The position numbers and the translations under genes were made by a program. 64,000 nucleotides of DNA from Amphibalanus amphitrite (taxonomy: Eukaryota; Arthropoda; Thecostraca; Balanomorpha; Balanidae): the NCBI RefSeq assembly GCF_019059575.1, contig NW_024883002.1, positions 1 through 64,000 of the forward strand. Direction: 5' to 3'. The notes beneath the pieces were generated by a model. That model was not told where the DNA came from, ran no database searches, and was given only the letters and a program-made list of their open reading frames with translations. This document shows positions 33,700 through 62,766 of the stretch, piece by piece; the first letter of the stretch is position 1, and each line of letters starts with the position of its first letter.

Positions 33700-35228
33700 T
33701 CTATATTATGAATTATAAGTTGTCCGTGCGTGCGTGCGTGCGTGATCCGTCATGACTTATGTGTCTTATTGCGCCTGAAAGGCGCCGCGTATCGGCGTGA
33801 AATTTGGCATGCCAAATCTGTGGGCGTGGGCGGACTTTGTATTAAAATTTGGGGGTGATCGGACCAGGGGTGCGCCGTCAGCACGCGCTCGCGTGCGCCA
33901 TAGGGTTAACACGGGAAACGGTCAAAACGAACATCGTACGAAAACCGGCCTGCGGCGCCCACTTCCCGGGCCCAAAACTCGGCGACAGATTGCCGTAGCG
34001 AGGTGGGGTTGCCACCACTGGATAGAGGAGAGATGGGCCTAGCGTATTGATATGGTTTCATAGTATAGCACGCGCCACGTGCAAGACAGCACCCCCGGTT
34101 GTGAAAAAATGACCGATTTCGTGCATTGTGACGGGAAAATCGATGCCGCTGGAAAACGGCTTGACGGAATGAAATCGGTGTTGTATCATTTTGCAGACAA
34201 ATGTATGTGTTATCAGAGAATAGCAAACAAAAACTGATGATCCGTACCATTTCCTTAATAATGAAAAATTAATTTGAAAATTTGATTCGCGTGGAGCGCG
34301 ACGTCCTTTACAACATCAAAACGTATTTAAAACGCTGACCAATCGCTATGAAAACTTTATATTCGGAAAGAGCATTCTTTTCTGACCAATATCCACCCAA
34401 AATATTATCGAAAAGTCAATAAACTTTTGTGAAAATGACTCAAGCATGTGACCGTGTTTTGTTAACGTTACCGGTATTTTTCGACAAAATCCGATCGATG
34501 GCTTATCGCCGGCAAGTCATTCATTTTTTGACAAGCTATCAAAGCATGGGCTGCGATACACCGCCCGCCAAGGGGAATTCCAAACACTGAAAATAAGCGC
34601 CTACCAGTAAACAGCACATTTTTGTACTAGGAATAACTCAGCTGCTACTGGGCCGATTGCGCTGAAACTTGGACTGTGGGTGGAGGGGGCACTCATCTGG
34701 CGATGCATGGTCATGTGTGACAGGTAGGGTGGATCGATTGCACGTGCGCACGTGAGGGGTCCACTTATACATCTCAAGAACGGCTGGGCCGATTTCGCTC
34801 AAATTTTGTACACCGTTAGGAACAATTTAGAAAGGTGGCTGGCACAAGTCATCTAGAGTCTCAGTTAGCGCGTGCGCACGTGCAGTTGGCCGCTTTTATA
34901 TCTCAAGAGCGGCTGGGCCGATTGCGCTCAAATTTGGTACATTACTTTAATCGAGTATGAGAAGGGTAACTACGTGTAGGTTATGAGTAAGGTAGGGTGT
35001 GTGTTGGGTAGGGTAGGATAGGGTGGGTTTGAGTTCGATAAAGGCAAACCATGAGAAAGGCTCTAACAACCCGCAACCAGCACCAGCATACCATGCTGTT
35101 CAAACAAATATCCAACTCCGACAAAATAAGACAAATAAAAATCAAAAGTTCCCACACCCAAACTAATGCCCCCTCAAACGCATCTATCAAAACGCACAGT
35201 TAGGTATAGCGCAAAACATGCCATCTAG
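33700..35228 (+). mobile_element. Non-autonomous Helitron, unit 1 (1529 bp)
   Basis: 5' end TCTATATTATGAATTATAAG and 3' end ..GCCATCTAG. It has the family hairpin GCGCC-TGAAA-GGCGC near 33770, a GCACGCGCTCGCGTGC fold-back, GTAGGGT-type repeats (34990-35030) and CACGTGCGCACGTG modules. It has no Rep/helicase coding. Confidence 0.85.
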
Positions 35229-35232
35229 TCTA

Positions 35233-36131
35233 TCTATATTATGAATTATAACATGTCCGTACGTGTGTCATGCCTTATGTGTCTTATTGCGCCTGAAAGG
35301 CGCCGCGTAGCGACGTGAAATTTGGCATGCCGAATCGATGGGTTGAGGCGACCTCTGTATTAAAATTTGGGACAGATTGGTCCAGGGGTACGCCGTCAGC
35401 ACGCGCTCGCGTGCGCCATAGGGTTAACACGGGAAACGGTCAAAACGAACATCGGACGAAAACCGGCCTGCGGCGCCCGCTTCCCGGCTGTATAAGTCGG
35501 CAACGGGTGGGCGCAGCGAGAAGCGGTTTTCACCACTGGATAGAGGAGAGATGGAACTAGCGTATTGATATGGTTTCATTGTATAGCACGCGCCACGTGC
35601 AAGACAGCACCCCCGGTTGTGAAAAAATGACCGATTTCGTGCATTGCGAAGGAAAAATCGATGCCGCTGGAAAACGGCTTGACGGAATGAAATCGGTGTT
35701 GTATCATTTTGCAGACAAATGTACGTGTAATAATAGGAAAGCAAATAAAAAGTGACGATCCGTACCATTTCTTTAATAATGAAAAATTAATTTGAAAATT
35801 TGATTTGCACGGAGCGCGATGTCCTTTACAACACCAAAACGTATTGAAAACGATGATCAATCGTTATGAAACCTGCATATTCGGAAAGAGCATTCTTTTC
35901 TGACCAATATCCACCCAAAATATTATCGAAAAGTCAATAAACTTTTGTGAAAATGACTCAAGCACACGACCGTGTTTCGCTAGCGTCACGCTGTTTCCGA
36001 CGGATTTTTACTGATTGAGTCGGAATGGAAAACTATCGCCCCCTACCGGGAATCGAACCCGGGACCTTCATGATGGAATGCAGCTACGCTACCGACTGCG
36101 CCAGAGCGGACTCACGTGGGTGACGCTCCAA
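35233..36131 (+). mobile_element. Truncated Helitron 5' unit, copy 1 (899 bp)
   Basis: Matches the first 899 bp of the autonomous element that begins at 37031, including the tRNA-like segment, then stops at GACGCTCCAA. The autonomous element continues TACCG there. Four bases (TCTA, 35229-35232) separate it from the CTAG of unit 1. Confidence 0.9.
36038..36110 (-). pseudogene. tRNA-Met-like module in truncated unit 1
   Basis: The - strand has an A box TGGCGCAGTCGG, D stem GCGC/GCGT, and a B box in a perfect CCGGG-TTCGATT-CCCGG T arm. The anticodon stem does not pair and the acceptor stem has two mismatches, so it is a tRNA-derived sequence, not a functional tRNA. It most resembles elongator tRNA-Met around D and variable loops. 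Confidence 0.7.
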
Positions 36132-37030
36132 TCTATATTATGAATTATAACATGTCCGTACGTGTGTCATGCCTTATGTGTCTTATTGCGCCTGAAAGGC
36201 GCCGCGTAGCGACGTGAAATTTGGCATGCCGAATCGATGGGTTGAGGCGACCTCTGTATTAAAATTTGGGACAGATTGGTCCAGGGGTACGCCGTCAGCA
36301 CGCGCTCGCGTGCGCCATAGGGTTAACACGGGAAACGGTCAAAACGAACATCGGACGAAAACCGGCCTGCGGCGCCCGCTTCCCGGCTGTATAAGTCGGC
36401 AACGGGTGGGCGCAGCGAGAAGCGGTTTTCACCACTGGATAGAGGAGAGATGGAACTAGCGTATTGATATGGTTTCATTGTATAGCACGCGCCACGTGCA
36501 AGACAGCACCCCCGGTTGTGAAAAAATGACCGATTTCGTGCATTGCGAAGGAAAAATCGATGCCGCTGGAAAACGGCTTGACGGAATGAAATCGGTGTTG
36601 TATCATTTTGCAGACAAATGTACGTGTAATAATAGGAAAGCAAATAAAAAGTGACGATCCGTACCATTTCTTTAATAATGAAAAATTAATTTGAAAATTT
36701 GATTTGCACGGAGCGCGATGTCCTTTACAACACCAAAACGTATTGAAAACGATGATCAATCGTTATGAAACCTGCATATTCGGAAAGAGCATTCTTTTCT
36801 GACCAATATCCACCCAAAATATTATCGAAAAGTCAATAAACTTTTGTGAAAATGACTCAAGCACACGACCGTGTTTCGCTAGCGTCACGCTGTTTCCGAC
36901 GGATTTTTACTGATTGAGTCGGAATGGAAAACTATCGCCCCCTACCGGGAATCGAACCCGGGACCTTCATGATGGAATGCAGCTACGCTACCGACTGCGC
37001 CAGAGCGGACTCACGTGGGTGACGCTCCAA
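36132..37030 (+). mobile_element. Truncated Helitron 5' unit, copy 2 (899 bp)
   Basis: Appears identical to 35233-36131, including the same break at CTCCAA before the next TCTATATT. Open frames of 61-114 codons recur in each unit on both strands but have no recognisable domains. Confidence 0.9.
36937..37009 (-). pseudogene. tRNA-Met-like module in truncated unit 2
   Basis: Same sequence and position within its unit as 36038-36110. Confidence 0.7.
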
Positions 37031-37835
37031 TCTATATTATGAATTATAACATGTCCGTACGTGTGTCATGCCTTATGTGTCTTATTGCGCCTGAAAGGCG
37101 CCGCGTAGCGACGTGAAATTTGGCATGCCGAATCGATGGGTTGAGGCGACCTCTGTATTAAAATTTGGGACAGATTGGTCCAGGGGTACGCCGTCAGCAC
37201 GCGCTCGCGTGCGCCATAGGGTTAACACGGGAAACGGTCAAAACGAACATCGGACGAAAACCGGCCTGCGGCGCCCGCTTCCCGGCTGTATAAGTCGGCA
37301 ACGGGTGGGCGCAGCGAGAAGCGGTTTTCACCACTGGATAGAGGAGAGATGGAACTAGCGTATTGATATGGTTTCATTGTATAGCACGCGCCACGTGCAA
37401 GACAGCACCCCCGGTTGTGAAAAAATGACCGATTTCGTGCATTGCGAAGGAAAAATCGATGCCGCTGGAAAACGGCTTGACGGAATGAAATCGGTGTTGT
37501 ATCATTTTGCAGACAAATGTACGTGTAATAATAGGAAAGCAAATAAAAAGTGACGATCCGTACCATTTCTTTAATAATGAAAAATTAATTTGAAAATTTG
37601 ATTTGCACGGAGCGCGATGTCCTTTACAACACCAAAACGTATTGAAAACGATGATCAATCGTTATGAAACCTGCATATTCGGAAAGAGCATTCTTTTCTG
37701 ACCAATATCCACCCAAAATATTATCGAAAAGTCAATAAACTTTTGTGAAAATGACTCAAGCACACGACCGTGTTTCGCTAGCGTCACGCTGTTTCCGACG
37801 GATTTTTACTGATTGAGTCGGAATGGAAAACTATC

Positions 37836-37908
37836 GCCCCCTACCGGGAATCGAACCCGGGACCTTCATGATGGAATGCAGTTACGCTACCGACTGCGCC
37901 AGAGCGGA
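37836..37908 (-). pseudogene. tRNA-Met-like module in Helitron A
   Basis: As 36038-36110 with one substitution (GCAGTTACG instead of GCAGCTACG on the + strand). Confidence 0.7.
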
Positions 37909-38544
37909 CTCACGTGGGTGACGCTCCAATACCGTAGTAAATCAGATCTTGGTAAGCAAATGACTGAAATTTTAATGCGGAGAGAGCAAAAGTGTTTCTA
38001 CGTATATAACTCATATGATTCCTTATATAACATTTTAGATATTTAAGCACACTTCATGCTAATATTTTATTTGCATAGCGTGAGAGATTTATTTATCTAA
38101 ACTTGATCAAAATTTCCTTTTTTAGCCACGACCTTGATTTGTCGCATAGCAACGGGACACGCAACAATAGTGGTAAACAATTTCAGCAAGAGCAGCCGGT
38201 GAATGGGGTGAATGCACCACAGGCTCGAGTGATAGGTTTCGCTGTTGGGATTACTATTGACTATTCGAGAGGCGATCGTTTGAGTGAAATTTTGCGCCTA
38301 TTTGTGCGTATTATCTGCGCTCACTTGATTGTTGATCGTGTCTAAGTAAGCCCTGATGTGAATTTCCTTGCTCAACGGCTGATCATTGAAACCATTGAAA
38401 CTTTGCGCGGAATTATTTGATTGAGTAATTCGAGTCATTCGGGTAGGTACATACCTACCATACCTGCCGTTAGCTTGATTACTCATAAGTTGTCCAAAAG
38501 CATCATCTACTGTCTGCACTTTTACCCAGCTAACTTAGACAGCC

Positions 38545-40025
38545 ATGCCGCGTAATGAGCGGGGCAGTGCTGCTCGGGCGGCGAATGCCGCGGCCCAGCG
38601 CCGGCGGCGTGAACGGATGGCGCAGGCCAGGCGGGAGGCCGAGGCACTCCGTAACGCCGAGCGGGAAAGACAGCGACGGGCGGCCTTTGATGAGGCCCAC
38701 ATGGAAGCAGAGGCCGAGAGACAGCGGCAGCGGAGGGCTGACATGCCCATAGAGGTACGTGACGCAGAGCGGGCGGCCAACGCGAGGGGTCACATGGAGG
38801 GGCGCCGCAGAGCCGACCGGGCCAATCGAGCCGCCTGTGACGCCGACTCCGTGCTGTCCGATCGCCAGCCGGTGGCCAGGCTCGACACGGGGGCACGCGA
38901 CACGGTATGTCCGCACTGCGGCGCCCTCCTCTGGCGAGAGGAGCGGGCCACTCTGTGCTGTTCGGGGGGAAAGGTAAACCTAGATCCCCTGCCCGCCCCG
39001 CCACCGCTACTCCGTGAGCTGTGGACGGGCGACACGCTGGAGGCACGCACATTCAGACAGCACTCCCGGCGCCTGAACACGGCGCTGTCTCTGGCGTCTA
39101 TGATGACACGGGAGGTGAGACCGGCGGACGGTGGGTACGCACCATCAGTGATCATACAAGGTAGGTTGTATCACCGCGTCGGTCCGCTGCAGGCCAGAGA
39201 CGGGGAGCGGCCATCATTCGCCCAGATTTACGTAAATGACCCAGACTGTGACGACCCGGCGGCAGAGGCCGCCCTTCGCCTCGGACATGTGCCGCTGCCC
39301 CGCGGCACCCGGGAGCCGGAGCGGGCGCGCCTGCTGACGCTGCTCGAACAGCTGCAGGTCCTGCTGCGTCAGGTAAATCCCTATGTGCAGGACTTTATCC
39401 ACGCCGCCGAGCTGCCAGAGGAGGAGGTTCAGCAGCAGAGACTGGTGGTAAGTGCCGACGCCCGCCCGGCCGACCAGCACCCCCGACGGTACAACCGCGC
39501 CGAGGGGTTCCGGGAGGTGGCCGTGCTGATGGACGAGGAGCCCGTCCATCAGGACATCGTGCTGCGTCGCCGTGCCGATGCCGAAGGTCCGTTCCTCCAG
39601 ACGGTAAATGAGACGCACCGGGCGTTTGAGGCTCTGCACTTCGTGCTCCTTCTGCCGTTTGGCACAGACGGCTGGCAGCCAGACCTACGGCAGGCGGTGG
39701 CAAACGGGCGCGGGGACGTGAGGGGCGTGACGCTGATGCAGTACTACGCTCATCGGCTGCAGCTGCGACCCGACCTCGATGACTCACTGTTCCGCGCAGG
39801 ACGCCTGTTTCAGGAGTACGTGTGCATGGCTTTTGCGCGCGTAGAGACCCAGCGTCTGCTGTACCTGGCTCGGAACCAGGCCGGCCTGCGTGCCGAGCTG
39901 TACCAGCGCCTCCAGGACGCGCTGCCGGGGGACGCCGAAAGGGAGCTGGCCGGCGGAGACCGCGTCGGTCAGCGTGTCATCCTGCCGGCTTCCTTCACCG
40001 GCGGGCCCCGGTACTACCAGCGCAG
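38545..40025 (+). CDS. Helitron A Rep/helicase, exon 1
   Basis: Encodes the N-terminal region from ATG 38545: an Arg/Ala/Glu-rich coiled stretch (~residues 1-110), a zinc-binding motif CPHC..W..CC (residues ~122-140) and the Helitron-like N-terminal domain ending LPASFTGGPRYYQR. LLPFGTDGWQPDLR and the SFTGGPRYY block are hallmarks of this family. The exon ends CGCAG|GTGAAT with phase 2. All four exons add to 4551 nt (1516 aa), the usual size for a Helitron RepHel protein. A 5' non-coding exon is possible but not shown. Confidence 0.92.
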
Positions 40026-40333
40026 GTGAATTATTTACGAGCGCGTTACATTGCTTATTATGTAGAAATCGGTTGTTGAATCAAATGATTAACCCGTGCC
40101 CTGCTTGGGGGGGGGGGGGGGGTAGTGTGAATTTGAACAGCCCCGCCCCGCTGGGATTTTTCGTGAATATCTCAAAAATTGTTGCCACCGTTTTTGGTAC
40201 ACATCATAGATGCATTATGATATGATGTGTATCATGAAATGAAATTTTCATGATATGACCGTGTTCATGAAACTACGGATATTCTGGGCTCTCGAGAACG
40301 GAAGGGCTGTATTTTGAATACTGACGACGTTAA

Positions 40334-41075
40334 CCCTCGCCGGCACAGGCCATTTTGCGTCCTTCGACTGCACGGGGGGGGGGGCGACCCCCCTCGCGGT
40401 TGGCCCCTAATTGAGATAGAGCCTCGCCGAAAAAAACATCGTGTAGGTCGTCACGAGACGAAGCCAACGGTACCAGGTTTTAAGGTCATAGGTCAAATGG
40501 TGACCTCTGAGGTCAGTTCAATTACCCAAAAGTCGAGAAAATCGGGACCTGTTAGAACGTCGTAAAGTGTGGCTGTTATGGGGCTTTCCGGGGTGCTAAT
40601 CACGAATAGCATATTAATTTTGATCGCAATGATGTCTTCATGCATTAAGGTCAGGTCGGGTCAGGTCAGGTCAGGTCAACCAGTAGGTGTTCTGCCGGGT
40701 ATTCGTGGTAGGTGTCAACCGTCTCTGTCAGCTTCATAACATGCTCCGAAATCCGAAGGCACCAAAACTACTTCGTAAATGTTCAAATGGTCGCTAAATT
40801 CGAATTCAGCTCCAAAGACTAGCCTCGAAACATGTAAATCTCGAAAAGTGAGCCGAGGTTATCAAAGGTCAATGACCTGACCCGACCTTCAGGTGACTTT
40901 GATACCCACCCTAATGCCTGGGACCAACATCATATCACATTGTTTGAACGCTTGAAACCACGAAAAGATTGCAAACGCGCGGCTAATGCGAGCCGACATA
41001 CTCCGAATCGCGATTCCGGCCAAACATGGTCTCGAAAAGTAGGTCACAGGTCAAAGGTCATTTGGGTCAGGGTCA
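40334..41075. mobile_element. TTAA-class element in Helitron A intron 1, right end missing
   Basis: TTAA (40330-40333) then CCCTCGCCGGCACAGG, identical to the reverse-complemented right TIR of the 61865 element, so it is inserted in the opposite orientation. The homology runs to about GGGTCAGGGTCATGAAA (41075) but the other TIR is absent. There a ~90-bp direct repeat of 40237-40327 begins. An adjacent TTAACCCGTGCCCTGC (40090) may be the start of a second, older element. Confidence 0.8.
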
Positions 41076-41348
41076 TGAAATTTTCATGATATGACCGTGT
41101 TCATGAAACTACGGATATTCTGGGCTCTCGAGAACGGAAGGGCTCTATTTTGAATACTGATGACGTCACATTTGTGTCGTGAGGTCACGAAAGGCCACAA
41201 TTCCAAAGAGCCACACAATCTCATCCCCCTCTCTCTCCCCCCAATCAGTTGGTCGCGTTGTGATAGGTGTATATGTCAGCCTTCAGATAGGATTTTTGCG
41301 ATACTTCATTTCCTCATTTGGTGTTTCACCTTTGTCTCAATGTATCAG

Positions 41349-41596
41349 GTACCAAGACGCCATGGCCATCGTGCGAGTGTACGGCAGGCCGACGTACTTC
41401 GTGACGTTCACCTGCAACCCAAACTGGCCTGAGATCCAGGCGGCGCTCCTGCCCGGCCAGGATGCGCAGTCCCGCCCCGATCTGGTGGCCAGGGTGTTCC
41501 ACCTAAAGCTGAAGGCCCTGCTGAAGGAGCTCACCACCAGCGGCATCTTCGGACGCTGTGTCTCCATGCTGATGGTGGTCGAGTTCCAAAAACGAG
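41349..41596 (+). CDS. Helitron A Rep/helicase, exon 2
   Basis: Between TGTATCAG and GTGAGT. It accepts phase 2 and leaves phase 1. Reads YQDAMAIVRVYGRPTYFVTF then TCNPNWPEI, the first conserved motif of the Rep (HUH endonuclease) domain, and ends VVEFQKRG. Without the splice the protein would lack this motif. Confidence 0.92.
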
Positions 41597-42168
41597 GTGA
41601 GTAGGCACTAAAGGTTTGTGTTCGTGTGTGTGTGTGGGGGGGGGGCAAGGGGGGGAGGAGGGAGTGTGAAGGCAACCGATACAGCTCATCATGCATCAAT
41701 TTTACGTCGTGTGCATAATTTTAGCGCTCAGGTCACTTAGGTCAGGTCGAACTTACAAGTCAAAACCGCAAGATTTTTTTTTCAGAATCGCAACATCTGC
41801 CCAGTTGCAATGAGCAAAGTGCAGCTTATGGCCAGCGGCAGCAGTGGCCCGAAAGGTCATGTTGGTTCATAAAAAGGTCACCACCGCGTTTTTCCGACGT
41901 TAACTTTTTCTTGATGCATGGCAGAGCAATGAAAGCACCTGAATTGTGTGAATTTCACCGTCTATGATCGATTGATAAGTAACATTGCCCTTTCCTGTTA
42001 GGTCGTTACCCTCACCTGAGGTAAACTTTTCAGGTTAATATTTTACCTCATTCAACGTATTTGACTGGTCATGCACCCGTTAGGTTATGACTTTGACCTG
42101 AAGTAAATTTTTTTAAGGTCCTATTCTATCTCAAACGCCGCTTAAAACATTATTTACTTTCCCTGCAG

Positions 42169-44050
42169 GTCTGCCGCACGGCCATATCCTGGTCATCGTC
42201 CGGCAGGAGGACCGCCCGCGGACTGCCGACGATGTAGACGCAGTGATCACCGCGGAACTGCCCGACCCGGCCAGGTCAGACCAGGCGCGCCGCCTGCACG
42301 AGATCGTGGTGAGTACCATGGTACATCGCCAGTGCGGCGCCGCCAACCCGACGGCCGCCTGCATGGACGGCGGCCGCTGCTCCAAGGGCTTCCCCAAGCC
42401 GTTCGCCAACGCGACAGAGTGGCGGGATGACCATCCGTACCCTGTCTACAGGCGGCGACCGGCGGCCGAGGGCGGCCAGGAGTTTGTGCGTGACGGACGG
42501 CTCATCACCAACCAGTGGGTGGTACCCTTCTCTCCATACCTGTCCCTAAAATATGAGGCGCACGTGAACGTGGAGGTGTGCTGTTCGGTGCAGAGTGTGA
42601 AGTATCTTTTCAGGTACATCTACAAGGGCCCGGACCGCCAGATGGTGCGCGCTGACAACCTGATCGGCGGCGATGACGAGATCGCCGAGTACCAGGACAT
42701 GCGCTCGATCGGCGCCAGTGAGGCCTGCTGGCGTCTGTTCGACATGCCGATGAGCCAGCGGCAGCCGAACGTGGTCGCCCTACAGGTGCACCTCGAGGAC
42801 CACCAGCTGGTGTACTTCGAGCCGGGACAGGAGCGGCAGGCGGCCCAGGCCGCCCGACGCACCCACCTCACCGCCTGGCTGGAGTATAATCGGGAGTCGG
42901 CCGCCGCCGACCCGGACTGCCGCCGACTGCTCTACCCGGACTTCCCGTCCCGGTATACCTGGCAGGCCGGCCAGAAGGTGTGGCGCAAGAGGCGCCAACA
43001 GCAGGCGGCAGAGGCAATCGGCCGCGTGGTGAGCCTCTCACCGCGTCACGGCGACGTGTTCTACCTCCGCGTGCTGCTGCACCACGTCGCGGGGGCGGCG
43101 TCCTTTGAGGAGCTGCGCACCGTGGACGGCGTGGTCTGTGCCACCTATCGTGAGGCGTGCTGTCTGCGCGGCCTTCTGCAGGACGACCGCGAGTGGGAGG
43201 TGACGATGGAGGACGCGGCGCACGCACAGATGCCGGCTCAAATCCGGCGCCTCTTCGTGACGCTGCTGCTCTTCTGTGCACCAGCCGATCCGTCAGAGCT
43301 GTTCAGGCGTCACCTGGACGCCATGTCTGATGACTTCGGCCGCCGTCATCGCGACCTGCCGGACGAGCTGCGCGCTGCACTAACACTGGTGGACCTGGAG
43401 CGGCAGCTACAGCAGGCCGGCAAAGAGCTCCGAGACTTCGGTCTGCCGGAGGTGACGCCCGATCAGCGGGCGCAAGCGGCTGAGCTGCAGCAGGCCGCCG
43501 AGCTGCGCCAGCTGCCGCGGCTCATTCAGGAGGAGCTGGAGTATGACGCAGCAGCGCTCAGAGACCAGGTGGCCATCCAGCTGCCCACTCTGCTGCCGCC
43601 GCAGCGCCACGTCTTCGACCTGGTGATGACGGCCGTCGACGGGCGGCGTCCGCTGGCCGTGTTCGTGGACGCCGCTGGCGGCACCGGAAAGACGTACGTC
43701 TTCAACACGCTGCTGGCGGCGGTGCGCTCTCAGGGTCTGGTAGCGCTCGCTGTGGCCTTCAGTGGAATCGCTGCCACTCTGCTGGACGGCGGGCGCACAT
43801 ACCACTCGCGATTCAAGGCACCGCTGCAGGTGGACGCGACATCAACGTGCGCCATCAGCGCGCAGAGCCCGCTGGCGGAGCTCATCCGACGGACGGCGCT
43901 CATCGTGTGGGACGAGGCTCCCATGGCCCACCGTCACCACCTGGAGGCGTTCGACCGCACGCTGCGTGACGTCACTGGCAGCGAGGAGCCGTTCGGCGGC
44001 AAACTCCTCGTGCTGGGCGGGGATTTCCGCCAAATTCTCCCAGTCATCAG
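42169..44050 (+). CDS. Helitron A Rep/helicase, exon 3
   Basis: Starts after TTTCCCTGCAG. The first codons give GLPHGHILVIV, the HUH metal-binding motif. The two-tyrosine catalytic motif is VKYLFRYIYKG (~42600-42625; Y-x3-Y). Then come a linker and the PIF1-like helicase: Walker A AAGGTGKTYVF (~43674-43705), DEAP Walker B (~43909-43923) and GGDFRQILPV (~44018-44046). It ends ATCAG|GTAACT in phase 2. All key catalytic residues of Rep and of the first helicase half are present. Confidence 0.93.
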
Positions 44051-44335
44051 GTAACTAGCAACAACAGGCATTCAGTGTGTATGAGAAAAAAAAAATGTGT
44101 ATCCAAAAATAGCTGTGGTACGTTTGCTATTTTTAGTGTAATTGAATACGACTGATATAATGCTCTTCCGCGCAATCGCATTACTGCAGTTAACAGTTTA
44201 ACATGTGAACTAAGTCGTAGCCATGAACATTCAACCGCTATGCCTTCAGAACGTATTCACTGATTTATATCGATGCCAGCGTCGTAAACATACTGCCGCA
44301 GCGGATTGATCGTAGACCGCATGCTTTGTGGTTTC

Positions 44336-44869: not shown

Positions 44870-44935
44870 CAGCCATTTCTGAGCATAAGTGGCCGTCTCG
44901 GCGCGTTTTTATATGCATATTTTTGTCCGTTTCAG

Positions 44936-47953: not shown

Positions 47954-48026
47954 GCCCCCTACCGGGAATCGAACCCGGGACCTTCATGATGGAATGCAGC
48001 TACGCTACCGACTGCGCCAGAGCGGA
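47954..48026 (-). pseudogene. tRNA-Met-like module in Helitron B
   Basis: Same module and position as in Helitron A, with the GCAGCTACG variant of the truncated units. Confidence 0.7.
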
Positions 48027-50143: not shown

Positions 50144-50449
50144 GTGAATTATTTACGAGCGCGTTACATTGCTTATTATGTAGAAATCGGTTGTTGAATC
50201 AAATGATTAACCCGTGCCCTGCTGGGGGGGGGGGGGGGTAGTGTGAATTTGAACAGCCCCGCCCCGCTGGGATTTTTCGTGAATATCTCAAAAATTGTTG
50301 CCACCGTTTTTGGTACACATCATAGATGCATTATGATATGATGTGTATCATGAAATGAAATTTTCATGATATGACCGTGTTCATGAAACTACGGATATTC
50401 TGGGCTCTCGAGAACGGAAGGGCTGTATTTTGAATACTGACGACGTTAA

Positions 50450-51192
50450 CCCTCGCCGGCACAGGCCATTTTGCGTCCTTCGACTGCACGGGGGGGGGGG
50501 GCGACCCCCCTCGCGGTTGGCCCCTAATTGAGATAGAGCCTCGCCGAAAAAAACATCGTGTAGGTCGTCACGAGACGAAGCCAACGGTACCAGGTTTTAA
50601 GGTCATAGGTCAAATGGTGACCTCTGAGGTCAGTTCAATTACCCAAAAGTCGAGAAAATCGGGACCTGTTAGAACGTCGTAAAGTGTGGCTGTTATGGGG
50701 CTTTCCGGGGTGCTAATCACGAATAGCATATTAATTTTGATCGCAATGATGTCTTCATGCATTAAGGTCAGGTCGGGTCAGGTCAGGTCAGGTCAACCAG
50801 TAGGTGTTCTGCCGGGTATTCGTGGTAGGTGTCAACCGTCTCTGTCAGCTTCATAACATGCTCCGAAATCCGAAGGCACCAAAACTACTTCGTAAATGTT
50901 CAAATGGTCGCTAAATTCGAATTCAGCTCCAAAGACTAGCCTCGAAACATGTAAATCTCGAAAAGTGAGCCGAGGTTATCAAAGGTCAATGACCTGACCC
51001 GACCTTCAGGTGACTTTGATACCCACCCTAATGCCTGGGACCAACATCATATCACATTGTTTGAACGCTTGAAACCACGAAAAGATTGCAAACGCGCGGC
51101 TAATGCGAGCCGACATACTCCGAATCGCGATTCCGGCCAAACATGGTCTCGAAAAGTAGGTCACAGGTCAAAGGTCATTTGGGTCAGGGTCA
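50450..51192. mobile_element. TTAA-class element in Helitron B intron 1, right end missing
   Basis: Counterpart of 40334-41075 at the same position and with the same missing right end, showing that the insertion came before the two Helitron copies separated. Confidence 0.8.
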
Positions 51193-51465
51193 TGAAATTT
51201 TCATGATATGACCGTGTTCATGAAACTACGGATATTCTGGGCTCTCGAGAACGGAAGGGCTCTATTTTGAATACTGATGACGTCACATTTGTGTCGTGAG
51301 GTCACGAAAGGCCACAATTCCAAAGAGCCACACAATCTCATCCCCCTCTCTCTCCCCCCAATCAGTTGGTCGCGTTGTGATAGGTGTATATGTCAGCCTT
51401 CAGATAGGATTTTTGCGATACTTCATTTCCTCATTTGGTGTTTCACCTTTGTCTCAATGTATCAG

Positions 51466-51713
51466 GTACCAAGACGCCATGGCCATCGTGCGAGTGTACG
51501 GCAGGCCGACGTACTTCGTGACGTTCACCTGCAACCCAAACTGGCCTGAGATCCAGGCGGCGCTCCTGCCCGGCCAGGATGCGCAGTCCCGCCCCGATCT
51601 GGTGGCCAGGGTGTTCCACCTAAAGCTGAAGGCCCTGCTGAAGGAGCTCACCACCAGCGGCATCTTCGGACGCTGTGTCTCCATGCTGATGGTGGTCGAG
51701 TTCCAAAAACGAG
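51466..51713 (+). CDS. Helitron B Rep/helicase, exon 2
   Basis: Counterpart of 41349-41596 with the same acceptor, donor and phases. Contains the TCNPNWPEI Rep motif. Confidence 0.92.
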
Positions 51714-52285
51714 GTGAGTAGGCACTAAAGGTTTGTGTTCGTGTGTGTGTGTGGGGGGGGGGCAAGGGGGGGAGGAGGGAGTGTGAAGGCAACCGATACA
51801 GCTCATCATGCATCAATTTTACGTCGTGTGCATAATTTTAGCGCTCAGGTCACTTAGGTCAGGTCGAACTTACAAGTCAAAACCGCAAGATTTTTTTTTC
51901 AGAATCGCAACATCTGCCCAGTTGCAATGAGCAAAGTGCAGCTTATGGCCAGCGGCAGCAGTGGCCCGAAAGGTCATGTTGGTTCATAAAAAGGTCACCA
52001 CCGCGTTTTTCCGACGTTAACTTTTTCTTGATGCATGGCAGAGCAATGAAAGCACCTGAATTGTGTGAATTTCACCGTCTATGATCGATTGATAAGTAAC
52101 ATTGCCCTTTCCTGTTAGGTCGTTACCCTCACCTGAGGTAAACTTTTCAGGTTAATATTTTACCTCATTCAACGTATTTGACTGGTCATGCACCCGTTAG
52201 GTTATGACTTTGACCTGAAGTAAATTTTTTTAAGGTCCTATTCTATCTCAAACGCCGCTTAAAACATTATTTACTTTCCCTGCAG

Positions 52286-54167
52286 GTCTGCCGCACGGCC
52301 ATATCCTGGTCATCGTCCGGCAGGAGGACCGCCCGCGGACTGCCGACGATGTAGACGCAGTGATCACCGCGGAACTGCCCGACCCGGCCAGGTCAGACCA
52401 GGCGCGCCGCCTGCACGAGATCGTGGTGAGTACCATGGTACATCGCCAGTGCGGCGCCGCCAACCCGACGGCCGCCTGCATGGACGGCGGCCGCTGCTCC
52501 AAGGGCTTCCCCAAGCCGTTCGCCAACGCGACAGAGTGGCGGGATGACCATCCGTACCCTGTCTACAGGCGGCGACCGGCGGCCGAGGGCGGCCAGGAGT
52601 TTGTGCGTGACGGACGGCTCATCACCAACCAGTGGGTGGTACCCTTCTCTCCATACCTGTCCCTAAAATATGAGGCGCACGTGAACGTGGAGGTGTGCTG
52701 TTCGGTGCAGAGTGTGAAGTATCTTTTCAGGTACATCTACAAGGGCCCGGACCGCCAGATGGTGCGCGCTGACAACCTGATCGGCGGCGATGACGAGATC
52801 GCCGAGTACCAGGACATGCGCTCGATCGGCGCCAGTGAGGCCTGCTGGCGTCTGTTCGACATGCCGATGAGCCAGCGGCAGCCGAACGTGGTCGCCCTAC
52901 AGGTGCACCTCGAGGACCACCAGCTGGTGTACTTCGAGCCGGGACAGGAGCGGCAGGCGGCCCAGGCCGCCCGACGCACCCACCTCACCGCCTGGCTGGA
53001 GTATAATCGGGAGTCGGCCGCCGCCGACCCGGACTGCCGCCGACTGCTCTACCCGGACTTCCCGTCCCGGTATACCTGGCAGGCCGGCCAGAAGGTGTGG
53101 CGCAAGAGGCGCCAACAGCAGGCGGCAGAGGCAATCGGCCGCGTGGTGAGCCTCTCACCGCGTCACGGCGACGTGTTCTACCTCCGCGTGCTGCTGCACC
53201 ACGTCGCGGGGGCGGCGTCCTTTGAGGAGCTGCGCACCGTGGACGGCGTGGTCTGTGCCACCTATCGTGAGGCGTGCTGTCTGCGCGGCCTTCTGCAGGA
53301 CGACCGCGAGTGGGAGGTGACGATGGAGGACGCGGCGCACGCACAGATGCCGGCTCAAATCCGGCGCCTCTTCGTGACGCTGCTGCTCTTCTGTGCACCA
53401 GCCGATCCGTCAGAGCTGTTCAGGCGTCACCTGGACGCCATGTCTGATGACTTCGGCCGCCGTCATCGCGACCTGCCGGACGAGCTGCGCGCTGCACTAA
53501 CACTGGTGGACCTGGAGCGGCAGCTACAGCAGGCCGGCAAAGAGCTCCGAGACTTCGGTCTGCCGGAGGTGACGCCCGATCAGCGGGCGCAAGCGGCTGA
53601 GCTGCAGCAGGCCGCCGAGCTGCGCCAGCTGCCGCGGCTCATTCAGGAGGAGCTGGAGTATGACGCAGCAGCGCTCAGAGACCAGGTGGCCATCCAGCTG
53701 CCCACTCTGCTGCCGCCGCAGCGCCACGTCTTCGACCTGGTGATGACGGCCGTCGACGGGCGGCGTCCGCTGGCCGTGTTCGTGGACGCCGCTGGCGGCA
53801 CCGGAAAGACGTACGTCTTCAACACGCTGCTGGCGGCGGTGCGCTCTCAGGGTCTGGTAGCGCTCGCTGTGGCCTTCAGTGGAATCGCTGCCACTCTGCT
53901 GGACGGCGGGCGCACATACCACTCGCGATTCAAGGCACCGCTGCAGGTGGACGCGACATCAACGTGCGCCATCAGCGCGCAGAGCCCGCTGGCGGAGCTC
54001 ATCCGACGGACGGCGCTCATCGTGTGGGACGAGGCTCCCATGGCCCACCGTCACCACCTGGAGGCGTTCGACCGCACGCTGCGTGACGTCACTGGCAGCG
54101 AGGAGCCGTTCGGCGGCAAAGTCCTCGTGCTGGGCGGGGATTTCCGCCAAATTCTCCCAGTCATCAG
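52286..54167 (+). CDS. Helitron B Rep/helicase, exon 3
   Basis: Counterpart of 42169-44050 with HUH, Y-x3-Y, Walker A and Walker B motifs retained. Base 54121 is G where copy A (44004) has C, changing Leu to Val just before LGGDFRQ, a conservative difference. Confidence 0.92.
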
Positions 54168-54452
54168 GTAACTAGCAACAACAGGCATTCAGTGTGTATG
54201 AGAAAAAAAAAATGTGTATCCAAAAATAGCTGTGGTACGTTTGCTATTTTTAGTGTAATTGAATACGACTGATATAATGCTCTTCCGCGCAATCGCATTA
54301 CTGCAGTTAACAGTTTAACATGTGAACTAAGTCGTAGCCATGAACATTCAACCGCTATGCCTTCAGAACGTATTCACTGATTTATATCGATGCCAGCGTC
54401 GTAAACATACTGCCGCAGCGGATTGATCGTAGACCGCATGCTTTGTGGTTTC

Positions 54453-54986
54453 TTTAGCTTCGCCCTGGTGGGAGGGGCTTTTTGACCACACTCGCCAGTT
54501 TACACTCACACTCGCCCACACAGTGAGCCCAGTAAAGAAATTTGAGCTAAATTTGTTATGGCCGATAATAGATCAAATGTGCATCGTATGAGTTATTTCT
54601 TATCTCCGGTCACATAAGGTCAACGGGTCTCCAGATTAAGATTAAGACGGGTCATCCAGCATTTTTTGCGATAACTTTAGGTAAACATGTTAGAACGATG
54701 CAAACACGTTAGTTAGATGGATTCAGTTAAACGACACAAATCGACAGTTATGACACATGACATTTTCTGGTAGGGTCACGACCTCGACCCTAGGTCAGAT
54801 TTTGCAGTCGGTCTTTTGAGGTGAGATTATACTTCATTCGACGCGTCTCAACGAGCGGAATGCGTCGCAGATAAAATCGACAGTACAACCTTGATGAGAA
54901 AGTTTCGCAGAAAAACGTTTCCCGCAAAATGTTAATGCTTTAGTTTTTCCCCTGTGGCTTAGACCCCCACCAGGGCGCCGGCTAAA
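54453..54986. mobile_element. TIR element in Helitron B intron 3, 534 bp
   Basis: Counterpart of 44336-44869, same ends and position. Confidence 0.7.
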
Positions 54987-55052
54987 CAGCCATTTCTGAG
55001 CATAAGTGGCCGTCTCGGCGCGTTTTTATATGCATATTTTTGTCCGTTTCAG

Positions 55053-55992
55053 GCACGGTACCCGCGCACAGGTGGTGGACGCCTGTCTGCGGCGGTCAGC
55101 GCTGTGGCGTCACTTCATTGTGGCGCCGCTGCTGGAGAACATGCGGGCGCGGCGGGCAGCCGGGCCGGACGGTCCAGAGCTGCGGGCGTTCTGTGACTGG
55201 CTGCTCGAGCTGGGAGAGGGACGCGCAGAAGGCCCCGAGGATGGGTTTGTTCAGCTGCCCCCGCACCTGGTGATGGACGCCGATGTCGACGCTGTCATTG
55301 ACTGGGTGTTTGATGACCTGGCAGGGCGACACGGCGACCGGGAGTGGATGGCGTCGCGGGCTGTGCTCGCGCCGCGAAACACTCGGGTCGACGAGCTGAA
55401 CGCCGCAGTCACCGAGCGCTTCCCCGGAGAGGCCGTCCGCCTGCTGAGCGCCGACAGTCTGGTGGAGGAGGCCGAGCAGCTGGATATTCCACATGAGTAT
55501 CTAAACACTCTGTGCGCTCCCGGCTTCCCACCTCACTGCTTGATGATAAAGCCAGGCATGCCACTCATGCTACTTCGTAATCTGTCCGCCACTGACGGAC
55601 TGTGCAATGGCACGCGACTAATCGCTGGTCGTATCATCAGCCCGCGACTCATGGAGGCCACTATCGCCTGCGGCAAAAACGCCGGAAGGCAAGTGCTTAT
55701 TCCACGGCTTCCACTCCAGCCCCCGGATGACGCGTTTCCCTTCCGCTGGGAGCGTCGCCAGTTCCCCGTGCGGCCAGGTTTCGCCATGACGGTGAACAAA
55801 GCCCAGGGGCAGACGCTCGGTCGGGTCGCGGTCTTCCTGGAGGAGCCAGTGTTCAGTCACGGGCAGCTGTACGTGGCTGCATCGCGGGTCGGCCGGCCGG
55901 CGGATCTGAGGATCGCGCTGCCCAGAGGTGGCCAGGGCGCAACACCCAATGTGGTGTACACGGAGGTGATGGGCCGAGGTGATGGCCGGTAG
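55053..55992 (+). CDS. Helitron B Rep/helicase, exon 4
   Basis: Counterpart of 44936-45875. A synonymous G/A difference (45113 versus 55230) was noticed. It retains the KAQGQTL and YVAASRV motifs and ends at the same TAG. Both tandem Helitrons therefore appear coding-competent. Confidence 0.92.
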
Positions 55993-57261
55993 ATCAACGG
56001 GTCGCAGAGGCGACGGGTAGCCAGAGCGCTACGAGCAACGCGGAGAGGAGGAGCGAGGAGCAACGAGGAGAAAACGGCCGGCCGACCGTGATGCAGGACG
56101 GATAAATCCTGGCGAGCCAATGCGCCGTCAAGTGGAAAATTTACACATTTAACATAATGCCGCAACTGGCTTTGGTGACCTCCAATGCGCGAGCGCAACT
56201 TATATTTTGAGGATAAATCAATGTATTGAGTGGCATGTTATAAAACATGTTTGATATGCTCTGATGATATATTTGATATTTGATGATATATTTTGATATT
56301 TGAGAGCACATCTAACAATGGGCGTTTGCCCCCAGCTATACAATCGGCTGCGAGTAGCACACACCGAGTACTTCTCGGGGGGCCTTATTGCCGCTGCCCA
56401 CGGCCGCCGTGTCTTCCCTCACCAGAGGTGTGCGCTCTGCACTCGGTGAGGGGTCTCGGGCGTTAAATAGAGACGCAATCCGATGTGGCAGCCTCCACGT
56501 GGCGGGTTGCGGGGTAAAAGCTAATAGCCACACAGAGCGACACGTAAGTATTTCACTGTTGTATTCACTAGATTTGATTGCGTTGCAGAAACATGTCATG
56601 TGCTGTCACCTGCCCACTGCATCTGCTTCCACTTCTTATCACGACATGACTTAGTGTCAGCCCCGAGGAAGGCAAGAGGACGCACGAGCGCTGCGCTGGA
56701 TTCTCCGACAGCATCTTCTCAGTCGCGGTGGTGACTGATACAACCAGCGTCTTACGGGTAAGGCAAGAAGTAAAGTATGGTTTGGTATGTGTTGAGTAGA
56801 GCTTCTGGGTAGGGTAGGATAGTGTAGCGTATGGCAAGGTTGAGTGCATAAGGGGCCAGCATGCGAAAGACTCAAACAACCCGTAATCAGCACCAGCACA
56901 CTTTAAAGTATCAAATTTCACCTAACTTATACGAATGAAAATATAACCTCATACATCAAACTAATGGCCCCATGAACAATAGCAATCGAAACGTACAGTT
57001 ATCGCGTGTATCCATCCATCAATCCTGGGTAGGGTAGGGTATTGTAGTGTATGTTAAGTTTGAGTGCATAAGGGCCCAACATCCGAAAGACTCAAACAAC
57101 CCGGTAATCAGCACCAGCATACCATACAGTTCAATTAAAACCAAATGTCAAACTTCACCTAGCTCATACAAATAAAAATATAACCGCATACACCCAAACT
57201 AATGCCCCCGTTAAACATATCTATCAAAACGCACAGTTATCGCGCAAACATGGCCATCTAG

Positions 57262-58394
57262 TCTATATTATGAATTATAAGTTGTCCGTCCATGCGTCAT
57301 GCCTTATGTGTCTTATTGCGCCTGAAAGGCGCCGCGTATCGGCGTGAAATTTGGCATGCCAAATCTGTGGGCGTGGGCGGCCTTTGTATTAAAATTTGGG
57401 CGTGATCGGACCAGGGGTGCGCCGTCAGCACGCGCTCGCGTGCGCCATAGGGTTAACATGGCAAACGGTCAAAACGAACATCGGATGAAAACCGGCCTGC
57501 GGCGCCCACTTCCCGGGCCCAAAACTCGGCGACAGATTGCCGTAGCGAGGTGGGGTTGCCACTGATGGGTAGAGGAGAGATGGACCTATCGTATTGATGT
57601 GGTTTCATAGTATAGCACGCGTCACGTGCAAGACAGCACCCCCAGTTGCGAAAAAATGACCGATTTCGTGCATTGTGGGAAGAAAAGCGATGCCGCTGGA
57701 AAACGGCTTGACGGAATGAAATCGGTGTGGTACCATTTTGCAGACAAATGTATGTGTAATCAGAGGATAGCAAACAAAAACTGATGCTCCGTACCATTTC
57801 CTTAATAATGAAAAATTAATTTGAAAATCTATTTCGCGCAGAACGCGATGTCCTTTACAACATCAAAACGTATTGAAAACGCTGATCAATGGCTATGAAA
57901 CCTGCATATTCGGAAAGAGCATTCTTTTCTGACCAATATCCACCCAAAATATTATCGAAAAGTCAATAAACTTTTGTGAAAATGACTCAAGCATGCGACC
58001 GTGTTTTGATAACATTACGCGTATTTTCCGACGAAATCGGATCGGTGGCTTCGGCAGGCAGGCCCAGGCAGGCCAATGAACCTTTGACAACAAACGGTAG
58101 CGGAAGGCACCTCTCGCCAGGGGAATTCGCCAGTAAATAAAATAAATTTATTCTTGCAATAACTCAGCCGCTACCGGGCCGATTGTGCTGAATTTTGGGA
58201 CTGTCCACGGGCACGTATCGAACGACACAAAACCATATGTAGGGTGCTAAATGCTAATGCACGTACACACCTGGAAAGGAGCAGTTTCCTATCTCAAGAA
58301 CGGCTGGGCCAATTTCTCTTAAACTTGGTACACACTACAGAACCAGTAAATCAATTAAATACCATACAGTTATCGCGCAAACATGGCCATCTAG
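57262..58394 (+). mobile_element. Non-autonomous Helitron (1133 bp)
   Basis: 5' TCTATATTATGAATTATAAG and 3' CAGTTATCGCGCAAACATGG then CCATCTAG. Closely related to unit 1 in the first ~750 bp, with the same GCGCC-TGAAA-GGCGC hairpin. No coding capacity. Confidence 0.85.
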
Positions 58395-59502
58395 TCTATA
58401 TTATGATTTATAAGTCGTCCGTGCGTGCGTTCTCCATCCATCCGTGTGTCATGACTTATGTGTCTTATTGCGCCGGAACGGCGCCGCGTATCGACGTGAA
58501 ATTTGGCATGCCGAATCTGTGGGCGTGGGCGGCCTTTGTATTAAAATTTGGGCGTGATCGGATCAGGGGTGCGCCGTCGGCACGTGCAAAAGGGTGCTCC
58601 CATAGGCTTAACACGTGGCCGGCGAAAACCGCCAACGGGCGAAAATCGGGCCTGCAGCGCTCCTTTCCCGAGCTTATATCTCGGTAACCGTAAGTCGCAG
58701 CGACATGCGGTTTTCACTGATGGATACAGAAGAGATGGGCCTATCGTATGCAATAAGTTTTTTTCTTGGGTATATGTCACGTGCAAAGAAATAGCCTCTA
58801 ATCTCGAGAAAACGGGCATTTTTTACACACTTCAGGAAAAACGTTGGCATTTGAAAACGATGCATTGGAATGACACCGGATGCATTTCACGGACTACAAG
58901 AGGATCTGAACTGTTCAGAAAACATATATTTTTGCTCATTCACTCGCACATTTTTATAATTAAACGCTTACAAATTGCGAGTTTTACGTGAAACAGGCAC
59001 GCTCACCTTTACAACATCATAATATATTGATAACGTAGACTTATGGCTATAAGTCCTTAATGTATTGAAAGAGCACTCTTTTCTGATCAATATCCACCCA
59101 AAATATTTTCAAAAAGTCATCAAGGGCTCTAAGAAACAGAGCAATGATTATACCGTTTTCGACGCATTTTTACCGGTTGAGCGGCGGCGGCCGGGCTTGA
59201 ACGCGGCACCGGCGCGGTAATATTACCGTGTGCTTTATATTTGTCTAATACTCGCCGCTCAGCCGCTGACGGCGCGGCCGAGTGGATAAGATGCCAGTCT
59301 CCTAATCCGAAGGCGGATAGTTCGCGGCCGGTCAGCGACATAGTTTTTCGCCCGAATCGTCCCTAGGTAGCATTCGGCCAGCCGGCAACCGCCGAGAGGG
59401 CTGCGAATGTTACATTTTAACGAGCTGGCGTACCGTTAGGGATCGACTCAGCAACAAAGCATTCTTACTCTCAGATCAATATACCGAAAGCTGGCCATCT
59501 AG
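58395..59502 (+). mobile_element. Divergent non-autonomous Helitron
   Basis: 5' TCTATATTATGATTTATAAG with hairpin GCGCCG-GAA-CGGCGC. A 3' candidate is GCTGGCCATCTAG at 59490-59502, but the next base is G rather than T, so this end is uncertain. It contains two degenerate tRNA-like segments (about 59185-59225 and 59270-59335). Confidence 0.65.
59270..59340 (+). pseudogene. Second, different tRNA-like segment
   Basis: GGCGCGGCCGAGTGGATAAG followed by CCAGTCTCCTAATCCG and GATAGTTCGCGGCCGG has tRNA-like A- and B-box spacing, but the arms pair poorly. It lies at the position equivalent to the Met-like module in the other units. Confidence 0.4.
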
Positions 59503-59803
59503 GGTATGAGTACTAAGTAGTGTATGGGCAGAGTAGGTATGGGCAGGGTAGGGTATGGTTAGGTGACTGGTAGGATAGGGTAGAAGTTGGGTATGGGCCG
59601 GGTAGGGTATGGGCAGGGTAGGATAATGGCAGTGTTAGAGTATGGGCAGGGCAGGGTATGGGCAGTGCAGAGTATGGTTAGGTGATGGGTAGGATAGGAT
59701 AGAAATTGGGTATGGGCAGGTAGGGTATGGGCAGGTAGGGTATGGGCAGGTAGGGTATGGGCAGGGTAGGGTATGGGTAAGGATCCAAATAATACAAGTA
59801 AAA
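59503..59803. repeat. GGGTATGGGCAGGGTA minisatellite
   Basis: About fifteen variants of GGTATGGGCAGGGTA. Similar G-rich repeats stand 300-500 bp before the 3' ends of the other Helitron units, so this may be the 3' part of the preceding unit. Confidence 0.85.
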
Positions 59804-60528
59804 TCTTACTTAATAAATTATAAGTCGTGTCTGCGTCCGTCAGCCTTATGTGTCTTAAAGCGCCGGAACGGCGCCGCGTATCGACGTGAAATTTACTGGG
59901 CACAAACTTTGGGTGGGGCGGACGATCGTATCAAAAGATGGGCGCAATCGGACCAGGGGTGCGGCGTCAGCGCGTGCATCTCTGCCCCAGGCTTGCCGAG
60001 GCCGGCGCCGAGCAGAGAGCACGCGCGGTAGGCTCATTTTCTTCGCTTGCAAAACTGAGTGAAAACGATGAGAGCCAGCTCGGGAAGTCAACTCTGTGGA
60101 TATGGTGGATATCAAGAATACAGGTTTGCGATGTTTGCGATTAGGATCGGGTATAGGCGCAGGTACAGGTATTTGGTACAGGTTTCACCGGTAAATAAAA
60201 TAAATTTATCATTGTCACATCCCCACTTACGTGTACCTGGACGCGCCCCTGCGGCCCCGCTCGAGCGGGACCGCTGACCGGTCGGCAGTTGCCCGCTCGC
60301 TGTGCTCGCGAATACATGTGACAATCATCAAGCGAGCGAAGCGAGCAAACTTTCGGATCAGTAGTGCTCCTAGAAAAGCTATGCCTACCTTCTATAGGTA
60401 CAATGCAGGTAAGTAACTACCAAACACAACCCTACTTATATAAACATACAAGTTTTGACAACCAAACTAATGGCCCCATCAACAATATCTATCCAAACGT
60501 ACAGTTATCGCGTAAACCTGTATTCTAG
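59804..60528 (+). mobile_element. Last, most divergent Helitron unit
   Basis: 5' TCTTACTTAATAAATTATAA with hairpin GCGCCG-GAA-CGGCGC at about 59860. The 3' part GTACAGTTATCGCG.. ends TATTCTAG at 60528. It contains a GC-rich centre (60225-60310) not seen in the other units. Confidence 0.7.
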
Positions 60529-62762: not shown

Positions 62763-62766
62763 TTAA

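What the first reader, a model, noticed from the sequence alone, without database searches (positions are those of the whole stretch)
33700..60528. 26.8-kb head-to-tail Helitron concatemer at a single A|T site
Seven or eight Helitron units in one orientation fill one insertion. Four boundaries read CTAG|TC with no host DNA between 3' and 5' ends, two others join truncated units, and the outer ends lie between A and T. Tandem Helitrons are known and fit rolling-circle replication that misses its terminator. Here autonomous, truncated and divergent non-autonomous members are mixed in one array, which a single runaway replication of one element cannot explain. Repeated insertion at the CTAG|T junction or template switching between family members are alternatives.
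Basis: partly seen in the sequence, partly recalled or inferred. Interest (0 to 1): 0.93.

Follow-up and report, generated by a model that had tools for sequence, protein, structure and literature searches.

The report
Barnacle Helitrons stacked at one site
A 27-kb row of eight jumping genes (Helitrons) in a barnacle genome sits in one spot and was most likely built by new arrivals landing, one after another, at the front end of the copies already there, which would explain how such rows form.

Summary
The array is real. Eight head-to-tail Helitron units fill 33700-60528; the two flanks joined occur 1,294 times in the genome (up to 1 mismatch), so the array sits in one A|T of a common dispersed repeat, nothing duplicated or lost. 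The host is the barnacle Amphibalanus amphitrite. It is not one runaway concatemer: of 607 exact 5' ends of this family 337 directly follow CTAG, none is exactly head-to-head, and units of one array are no closer (10.5%) than units of different arrays (10.1%). Only U2-U5 are near-identical, a recent local amplification whose 899-bp joint is found nowhere else. Side of growth: in three cases a unit lies five bases inside a resident family-D element, same orientation, resident bases on both sides; age order agrees weakly (p 0.018; two related tests not significant). I infer oriented insertion at the resident's 5' end, where Rep nicks. Tandem and adjacent Helitrons are known; growth side, orientation rule and scale are what is new. 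Against: D copies lacking TCGGA, one failed prediction, possible composite elements.

The parts
33700..35228 (+). U1: non-autonomous unit, 5' TCTATATTATG, 3' type-a end ...CATCTAG; left flank is host AAAA
   Evidence: 96.7% to a unit on contig C22
35229..36131 (+). U2: truncated unit, extra TCTA then the first 899 bases of the autonomous element, ends CTCCAA
   Evidence: without TCTA identical to U3 and to bases 1-899 of U5
36132..37030 (+). U3: truncated 899-bp unit ending CTCCAA; exact joint found only in this window
37031..47148 (+). U4: 10.1-kb RepHel-bearing unit, ends CTATCTAG
47149..57261 (+). U5: second 10.1-kb unit of the same kind, 99.9% identical to U4
57262..58394 (+). U6: 1.13-kb non-autonomous unit, type-b 3' end
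58395..59803 (+). U7: divergent unit (95.5% to a unit on contig C79 over 1.1 kb) without a canonical 3' end
59804..60528 (+). U8: unit of a second 5'-end family (TCTTACTTAATAAATTATAA), type-c 3' end TATTCTAG, followed by host T
38545..40029 (+). ORF in U4 with the first part of the Helitron_like_N (Rep) domain
   Evidence: PF14214 E 3.9e-13
41179..41604 (+). ORF in U4 with the second part of the Helitron_like_N (Rep) domain
   Evidence: PF14214 E 1.8e-34
42243..44054 (+). ORF in U4 with the two-tyrosine motif KYLFRYIYKG and a PIF1 helicase; an HUH-type motif (GLPHGHIL) is encoded just upstream in the same frame
   Evidence: PF05970 E 2.9e-54
44889..45875 (+). ORF in U4 with the C-terminal part of the PIF1 helicase
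   Evidence: PF21530 E 5e-17
33668..33699 (+). left host flank, part of a dispersed repeat
   Evidence: 2,595 matches with up to 3 mismatches
60529..60541 (+). right host flank; joined to the left flank it gives the empty site
   Evidence: 1,294 matches with up to 1 mismatch

Best explanation
The array is a stack of separately arrived Helitrons of related families, presumably moved by the same RepHel-type machinery. The first unit inserted at a host A|T. Later units inserted, in the same orientation, at the 5' end of the unit already there, using the A|T made by the host A and the element's first T, or in family D a second A|T five bases in. Inferred mechanism: Rep recognises and nicks the 5' end of a resident element as it would to start transposition, and that nick, or the single-stranded DNA round it, is the acceptor for another element's circle or single strand, so the stack grows at its 5' side. 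Shown: the array and its single A|T site, the genome-wide excess and orientation of the joints, the separate ancestry of most neighbours sampled, and units lodged five bases inside D elements. Inferred: the Rep nick as acceptor, a shared Rep, and 5' growth for the X-X joints themselves. On top of this, U2-U5 are a recent local amplification of one autonomous element (an extra rolling-circle lap, or a copy inserted at its own donor's 5' end), with an 899-bp partial copy present twice that I read as aborted replication rejoined to the 5' end in place.
For: 337 of 607 exact X 5' ends directly follow CTAG; reversed-pattern control 0. No exact head-to-head joint at the X 5' end. In each of 22 regions (284 kb in all) the X 5' ends lie on one strand, 85 of 85. 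60 distinct units: same-array mean distance 10.48% (87 pairs), different-array 10.13% (1,683 pairs); nearest relative in the same array for 1 of 60, expected 3.1. Nested cases with resident D bases on both sides, TCGGA|unit|TATATT: C22 twice and C11 once, where the left TCGGA was predicted from the right side before it was fetched. D has about 152 AT dinucleotides, and no X or U8-type 5' end was seen inside the D bodies spanned in C11, C22 and C2137, so chance use of this one site in one orientation is unlikely. Age order: the right-hand unit has the longer terminal branch in 63 of 98 within-array pairs, permutation p 0.018. Empty site found 1,294 times. The 899-bp joint is found only in the window and its reciprocal was not found.
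Against: Two related age tests are not significant (leftmost versus rest p 0.28; adjacent pairs 26 of 46, p 0.18), and branch lengths depend on sampling. CTAG|TATATT occurs 15 times, but by spacing at least 5 of these follow a D 5' end by about one D length (C924, C503), so that joint alone does not prove nesting; my prediction of TCGGA-TCGGA at C503 failed. Of 7 exact TCGGA|X left sides, 2 have a verified D right side, 1 has a candidate 4.1 kb away, and 4 showed no unit end in the 600-bp windows fetched, so mobile TCGGA-X composites are possible. The three nested cases were noticed, not drawn at random. X-X joints carry no polarity by themselves. Most regions came from a query that spans a joint; the 337 of 607 count does not depend on them, but it counts exact matches only and may count haplotigs twice.
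Confidence: 0.68

Rival explanations
1. One runaway rolling-circle replication that missed its terminator produced the whole array and inserted it at once.
For: Exact CTAG|TC joints are what Helraiser circles have (PMC4778049, passages). U2-U5, C736 units 1-2 and 3-4, C993 1-2 and 3-4, and C1037 3-4 are near-identical neighbours.
Against: Outside these sets neighbours are about 10% apart and no closer than units of other arrays. U1, U6, U7 and U8 belong to other subfamilies or families than U2-U5.
Confidence: 0.05
2. Stepwise growth at the 3' side: each new unit inserted at the CTAG|T joint (a G|T site) after the resident.
For: Gives the same CTAG|TC joints; one of two orders considered for the maize pair in PMC2267711 (passages).
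Against: Needs a non-canonical G|T target; the age trend runs the other way (63 of 98 pairs, weak); the nested D cases show entry into the 5' end.
Confidence: 0.12
3. A chimeric concatemer made by template switching between family members during one rolling-circle event was inserted once.
For: Would mix diverged members with precise joints and needs only one insertion at one A|T.
Against: Predicts one insertion age per array; the nested D cases show entry into elements already present; the near-identical units C11_2 and C979_1 (0.13%) have different neighbours.
Confidence: 0.08
4. Assembly artefact in the near-identical stretch U2-U5.
For: Identical 899-bp and near-identical 10.1-kb copies are hard to assemble; the 899-bp joint is seen only here.
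Against: The joints begin exactly at the element's TC; U4 and U5 differ at 4 substitutions, 2 small indels and the last joint; joints of the CTAG|TC kind are common elsewhere.
Confidence: 0.07

Closest known systems
Tandem Helitrons of the bat Myotis lucifugus (Pritham and Feschotte 2007, not read; seen as cited in PMC2267711 and PMC4067079, passages)
   Same: Head-to-tail joints of Helitron ends.
   Different: There read as bypassed termination of one element; here most sampled neighbours have separate ancestry and over half of the exact 5' ends are joined.
Adjacent maize Helitrons of the r1 region (PMC2267711, passages)
   Same: Two unlike Helitrons head-to-tail at a G/T joint; consecutive insertion proposed; both orders considered.
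   Different: One pair, order left open; here there are 337 exact joints and some evidence for the 5' order.
Clustering of Helitrons in maize and bats (PMC3288121, passages; PMC4067079, passages)
   Different: No side or orientation rule in the passages I saw.
FoHeli self-insertions of Fusarium oxysporum (PMC5148889, passages)
   Same: One element 2 bp upstream of another's 5' terminal sequence; elements with several 5' termini explained by self-insertion.
   Different: Other termini and target; few cases.
Helraiser (PMC4778049 and PMC5876387, passages)
   Same: TC...CTAG ends, HUH Rep plus helicase; circles with the same end joint.
   Different: Helraiser has a 3' hairpin; none is seen in the last 61-62 bases of the three 3'-end types here.

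Membership tests
Helitron superfamily | RepHel protein: Helitron_like_N/Rep with HUH and two-tyrosine motifs, and a PIF1-like helicase | tested here: met
   Pfam PF14214 and PF05970; KYLFRYIYKG in the alignment; HGH in a frame read of the gap between ORFs. Which residues make up the motifs is from recall and the alignment. The ORFs are separated by stretches with stops; splicing was not tested.
Helitron superfamily | 5' TC and 3' CTRR | tested here: met
   TC...CTAG in U1, U4, U5, U6 and U8, U4 ending CTATCTAG. U2, U3 and U7 lack a normal 3' end.
Helitron superfamily | Insertion between A and T without target duplication | tested here: met
   Joined flanks occur 1,294 times.
Canonical Helitron (Helitron1) structure | Short hairpin just upstream of the 3' CTRR | tested here: not met
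   The last 61-62 bases of U1, U5 and U8 fold no better than shuffles (MFE -1.6 to -1.9 kcal/mol; z 0.09 to 0.75). PMC4778049 says the hairpin is not absolutely required (passages). I file the array under the superfamily, not under the hairpin-bearing canonical type.
Helentron / Helitron2 | Insertion within TT (as given for Culex Helentrons in PMC4067079, passages) | tested here: not met
   The outer site is A|T.
Helitron superfamily | Circular or single-stranded transposition intermediate | not testable with these tools
   Needs DNA from the animal.

The most novel reading that the evidence does not exclude
A resident Helitron's own initiation site is the preferred landing site of new Helitrons: the Rep nick at the 5' end serves as acceptor, in one orientation only, so that stacks grow at their 5' side, and in family D the A|T five bases in works both as cut site and as target. 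Donor nick and target site would be the same thing.
Probability: 0.45. Interest if true: 0.75.

Novelty: new variant of a known kind. Interest (0 to 1): 0.62.

Why it matters
[quoted passage not shown] Here 337 exact joints in one genome, with family D as a polarity marker, make the question testable: most sampled neighbours arrived separately, in one orientation, at what looks like the older element's 5' end. If right, it says where Helitron Rep delivers DNA, gives a way to build satellite-like arrays without runaway replication, and means that stack order can be used to order insertions in time.

Tried and rejected
Rejected: whole-array runaway replication. The 899-bp units as a separate mobile truncated element: the exact joint gave 2 hits, both in the window. 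The 899-bp site as a nested-insertion scar: the reciprocal joint gave 3 hits with up to 2 mismatches; two are U4 and U5 themselves, and the third, on C799, has no match to U5. TCGGA-TCGGA predicted at C503 for D inserted into D: not found. The extra TCTA as a nested remnant of X in X: no CTAG|TATTATG among the contexts printed, so left open. The tRNA-like stretch: 21.2 bits in the one copy tested, Rfam's cut-off being 29; no family reached its cut-off in the window. The window's other allele: the right-flank search was swamped by a repeat and the left flank is a dispersed repeat, so no true allele was found.

Rows dropped: one search counted 60 of 76 units, leaving out six divergent or short units, one cut at 70 bases, one outlier (C2137_3a) and eight repeat copies within an array. 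One search used 68 units; left out were seven named units (C317_7, C868_7, C79_4, WIN_7, C1037_3, C1037_4, C979_3), any under 700 bases, contig C2217 (near-copy of C173), one outlier (C2137_3) and repeat copies within an array. An earlier form of the age test with repeat copies left in gave p 0.028. The strand scan hid tandem units on the other strand by its filter; redid it without that filter.

Literature: what I say is or is not in print rests on searches (16 of 16 papers listed; 30 of 102; 20 of 26; 15 of 263; 12 of 21; 7 of 7) and on the passages named; no paper was read whole. Pritham and Feschotte 2007, Thomas 2014 (not held) and Xiong 2016 were not read.
Full report
What is there. The window is bases 1-64000 of contig C1505 of an 807.6-Mb assembly in 2,644 contigs. 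A protein search with the window's helicase ORF names Amphibalanus amphitrite in several hits, and one hit (P0005) has a contig of 1,833,276 bases, the length of contig C22 here, so the host is this barnacle. Eight Helitron units in one orientation fill 33700-60528: U1 33700-35228, U2 35229-36131, U3 36132-37030, U4 37031-47148, U5 47149-57261, U6 57262-58394, U7 58395-59803, U8 59804-60528. U4 carries a RepHel-type gene in several ORFs, with an HUH-type motif and the two-tyrosine motif; U5 is 99.9% identical to it.

One insertion site. Joining the last host bases before U1 to the first after U8 gives a 29-base sequence found 1,294 times in the genome with up to 1 mismatch, reversed-pattern control 0; the left flank alone is found 2,595 times with up to 3 mismatches. 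The stack therefore sits in one copy of a common dispersed repeat, exactly between A and T, without duplication or loss.

It is common in this genome. The 5' end TCTATATTATGAWTTATAA occurs 607 times; 337 of these directly follow CTAG. The exact head-to-head arrangement that an insertion in the other orientation at the same A|T would give occurs 0 times. In each of 22 fetched regions (284 kb in all, the window's array included) the X 5' ends lie on one strand, 85 of 85: 57 after CTAG, 20 after A, 8 after another base. Stacks on opposite strands do lie near each other elsewhere, for example on C57, each at its own A|T. The regions were chosen mostly by a query spanning a joint, so their share of tandem units is biased; the 337 of 607 is not, though it counts exact matches only and the assembly may hold some haplotigs.

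Separate arrival. After collapsing near-identical copies, units of one array are as far apart (10.48%, 87 pairs) as units of different arrays (10.13%, 1,683 pairs); shuffled labels gave a same-array mean at or below the observed one in 0.90 of trials, and the nearest relative is in the same array for 1 of 60 units (expected 3.1). This rejects runaway replication as the general origin. The exceptions are near-identical neighbours: C736 units 1-2 and 3-4, C993 1-2 and 3-4, C1037 3-4, and the window's U2-U5, plus one identical but not neighbouring pair on C79. U4 and U5 differ by 4 substitutions, 2 small indels and their last joint over 10.1 kb.

Side of growth. X-X joints give no polarity. Family D (about 2.5 kb, 5' end TCGGATATATTATAAAAGAG) does, because an A|T lies five bases in. 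In C22 two D copies are split there by a unit in the same orientation, with TCGGA on its left and TATATT on its right; one is an X unit, the other a 2.95-kb unit with a U8-type 5' end. In C11 I saw the right side first, wrote down the prediction that TCGGA would lie about 10.1 kb upstream, fetched it, and found host AAA, TCGGA, then a 10.5-kb unit. Resident bases on both sides mean that the newcomer entered the resident's 5' end. Genome-wide, CTAG|TATATTATAAAAGAG occurs 15 times against 150 exact intact D 5' ends. Not all 15 are such cases: on C924 and C503 at least five follow, by spacing, a D 5' end about one D length upstream, and where I looked that D had CTAG|TCGGA on its left. My guess of TCGGA-TCGGA at C503 failed. 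These joints fit D copies that start at the inner A|T and entered the same inner A|T of a resident, but that is an inference. Of 7 exact TCGGA|X left sides two are paired with D; one has a candidate right side 4.1 kb away; four are undetermined because no recognisable unit end fell in the windows fetched. A mobile TCGGA-X composite is thus not excluded. Of eight D 5' ends in the regions fetched, four are intact and all four directly follow CTAG, three are the split ones, and one is preceded by other sequence.

Age order. On a tree of 68 units the right-hand unit has the longer terminal branch in 63 of 98 within-array pairs (p 0.018); leftmost against the rest (p 0.28) and adjacent pairs (26 of 46, p 0.18) are not significant. 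The trend is in the direction of 5' growth and is weak.

U2-U5. U3, and U2 after its TCTA, equal the first 899 bases of U5 and end at CTCCAA, where the full element continues with T. The exact CTCCAA|TCTATATT joint is found twice in the genome, both in this window, and the reciprocal joint that a nested insertion would leave was not found. I read this as an in-place event: replication from the 5' end stopped at 899 and the new end was rejoined to the element's 5' end. A stem-forming stretch precedes the stop, but it folds no better than shuffles (MFE -10.5 kcal/mol, z -0.45).

3' ends. The three 3'-end types show no hairpin in their last 61-62 bases. Canonical Helitrons have one; Helraiser does not absolutely need it (PMC4778049, passages). 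I therefore place the elements in the Helitron superfamily and do not call them canonical.

Known and new. Tandem Helitrons and bypass of termination, and unlike Helitrons directly next to one another (PMC4067079, passages), preference for landing near other Helitrons in maize (PMC3288121, passages), an adjacent maize pair with open order (PMC2267711, passages), and self-insertion with several 5' ends in Fusarium (PMC5148889, passages) are in print. In my searches (lists partly capped) I saw no report of a genome-wide orientation rule or of 5'-end polarity for mixed stacks; the library holds only open papers. Of the 15 papers listed by the search for Helitrons and barnacles (263 held two of the three terms), the one holding the word Helitron is on decapods.

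Noticed in passing
C81:1020452-1037778 and others: Family D itself forms same-strand runs with a period of about 2.4-2.6 kb, eight intact 5' ends in a row on C81.
   Followed up: no
C924:177104-196867 and C503: Runs of D 5' ends lacking the first five bases follow an intact D 5' end at about one D length.
   Followed up: partly
window 35229-35232 and 47141-47148; contigs C979, C868, C79, C640: Several joints carry an extra TCTA or short TCTA...CTAG pieces between units.
   Followed up: partly
window 36037-36111, 36936-37010, 37835-37909, 47953-48027: tRNA-like stretch on the minus strand in U2-U5; the one copy tested scores below Rfam's cut-off.
   Followed up: partly
window 40239-41166 and 50355-51283: In U4 and U5 the Rep region holds a dispersed repeat between 92-bp direct repeats; a relative lies at 61996-62766, and that one has many relatives on other contigs.
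   Followed up: no
L021/L022 (C22:1685906-1688859) and L039 (C820): A unit with a U8-type 5' end has an internal CTAG followed by GCCGGCC and, on C22, runs on to a second CTAG, as if its first end had been bypassed; on C820 the later end was not fetched.
   Followed up: no
C2137 and C79 regions: Elements with inverted ends and TA at the borders (Tc1/mariner-like by recall) sit in a CTAG end and in an X 5' end.
   Followed up: no
C57:345300-347700 (L042): Two stacks face each other with their 5' ends 1.85 kb apart, each at its own A|T.
   Followed up: partly
L003 (C2217) and L005 (C173): 5.3 kb with the same stack is 99.94% identical on two contigs, probably haplotigs or a recent duplication.
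   Followed up: no
window 1-2504: 81-bp tandem repeat, about 32 copies.
   Followed up: no
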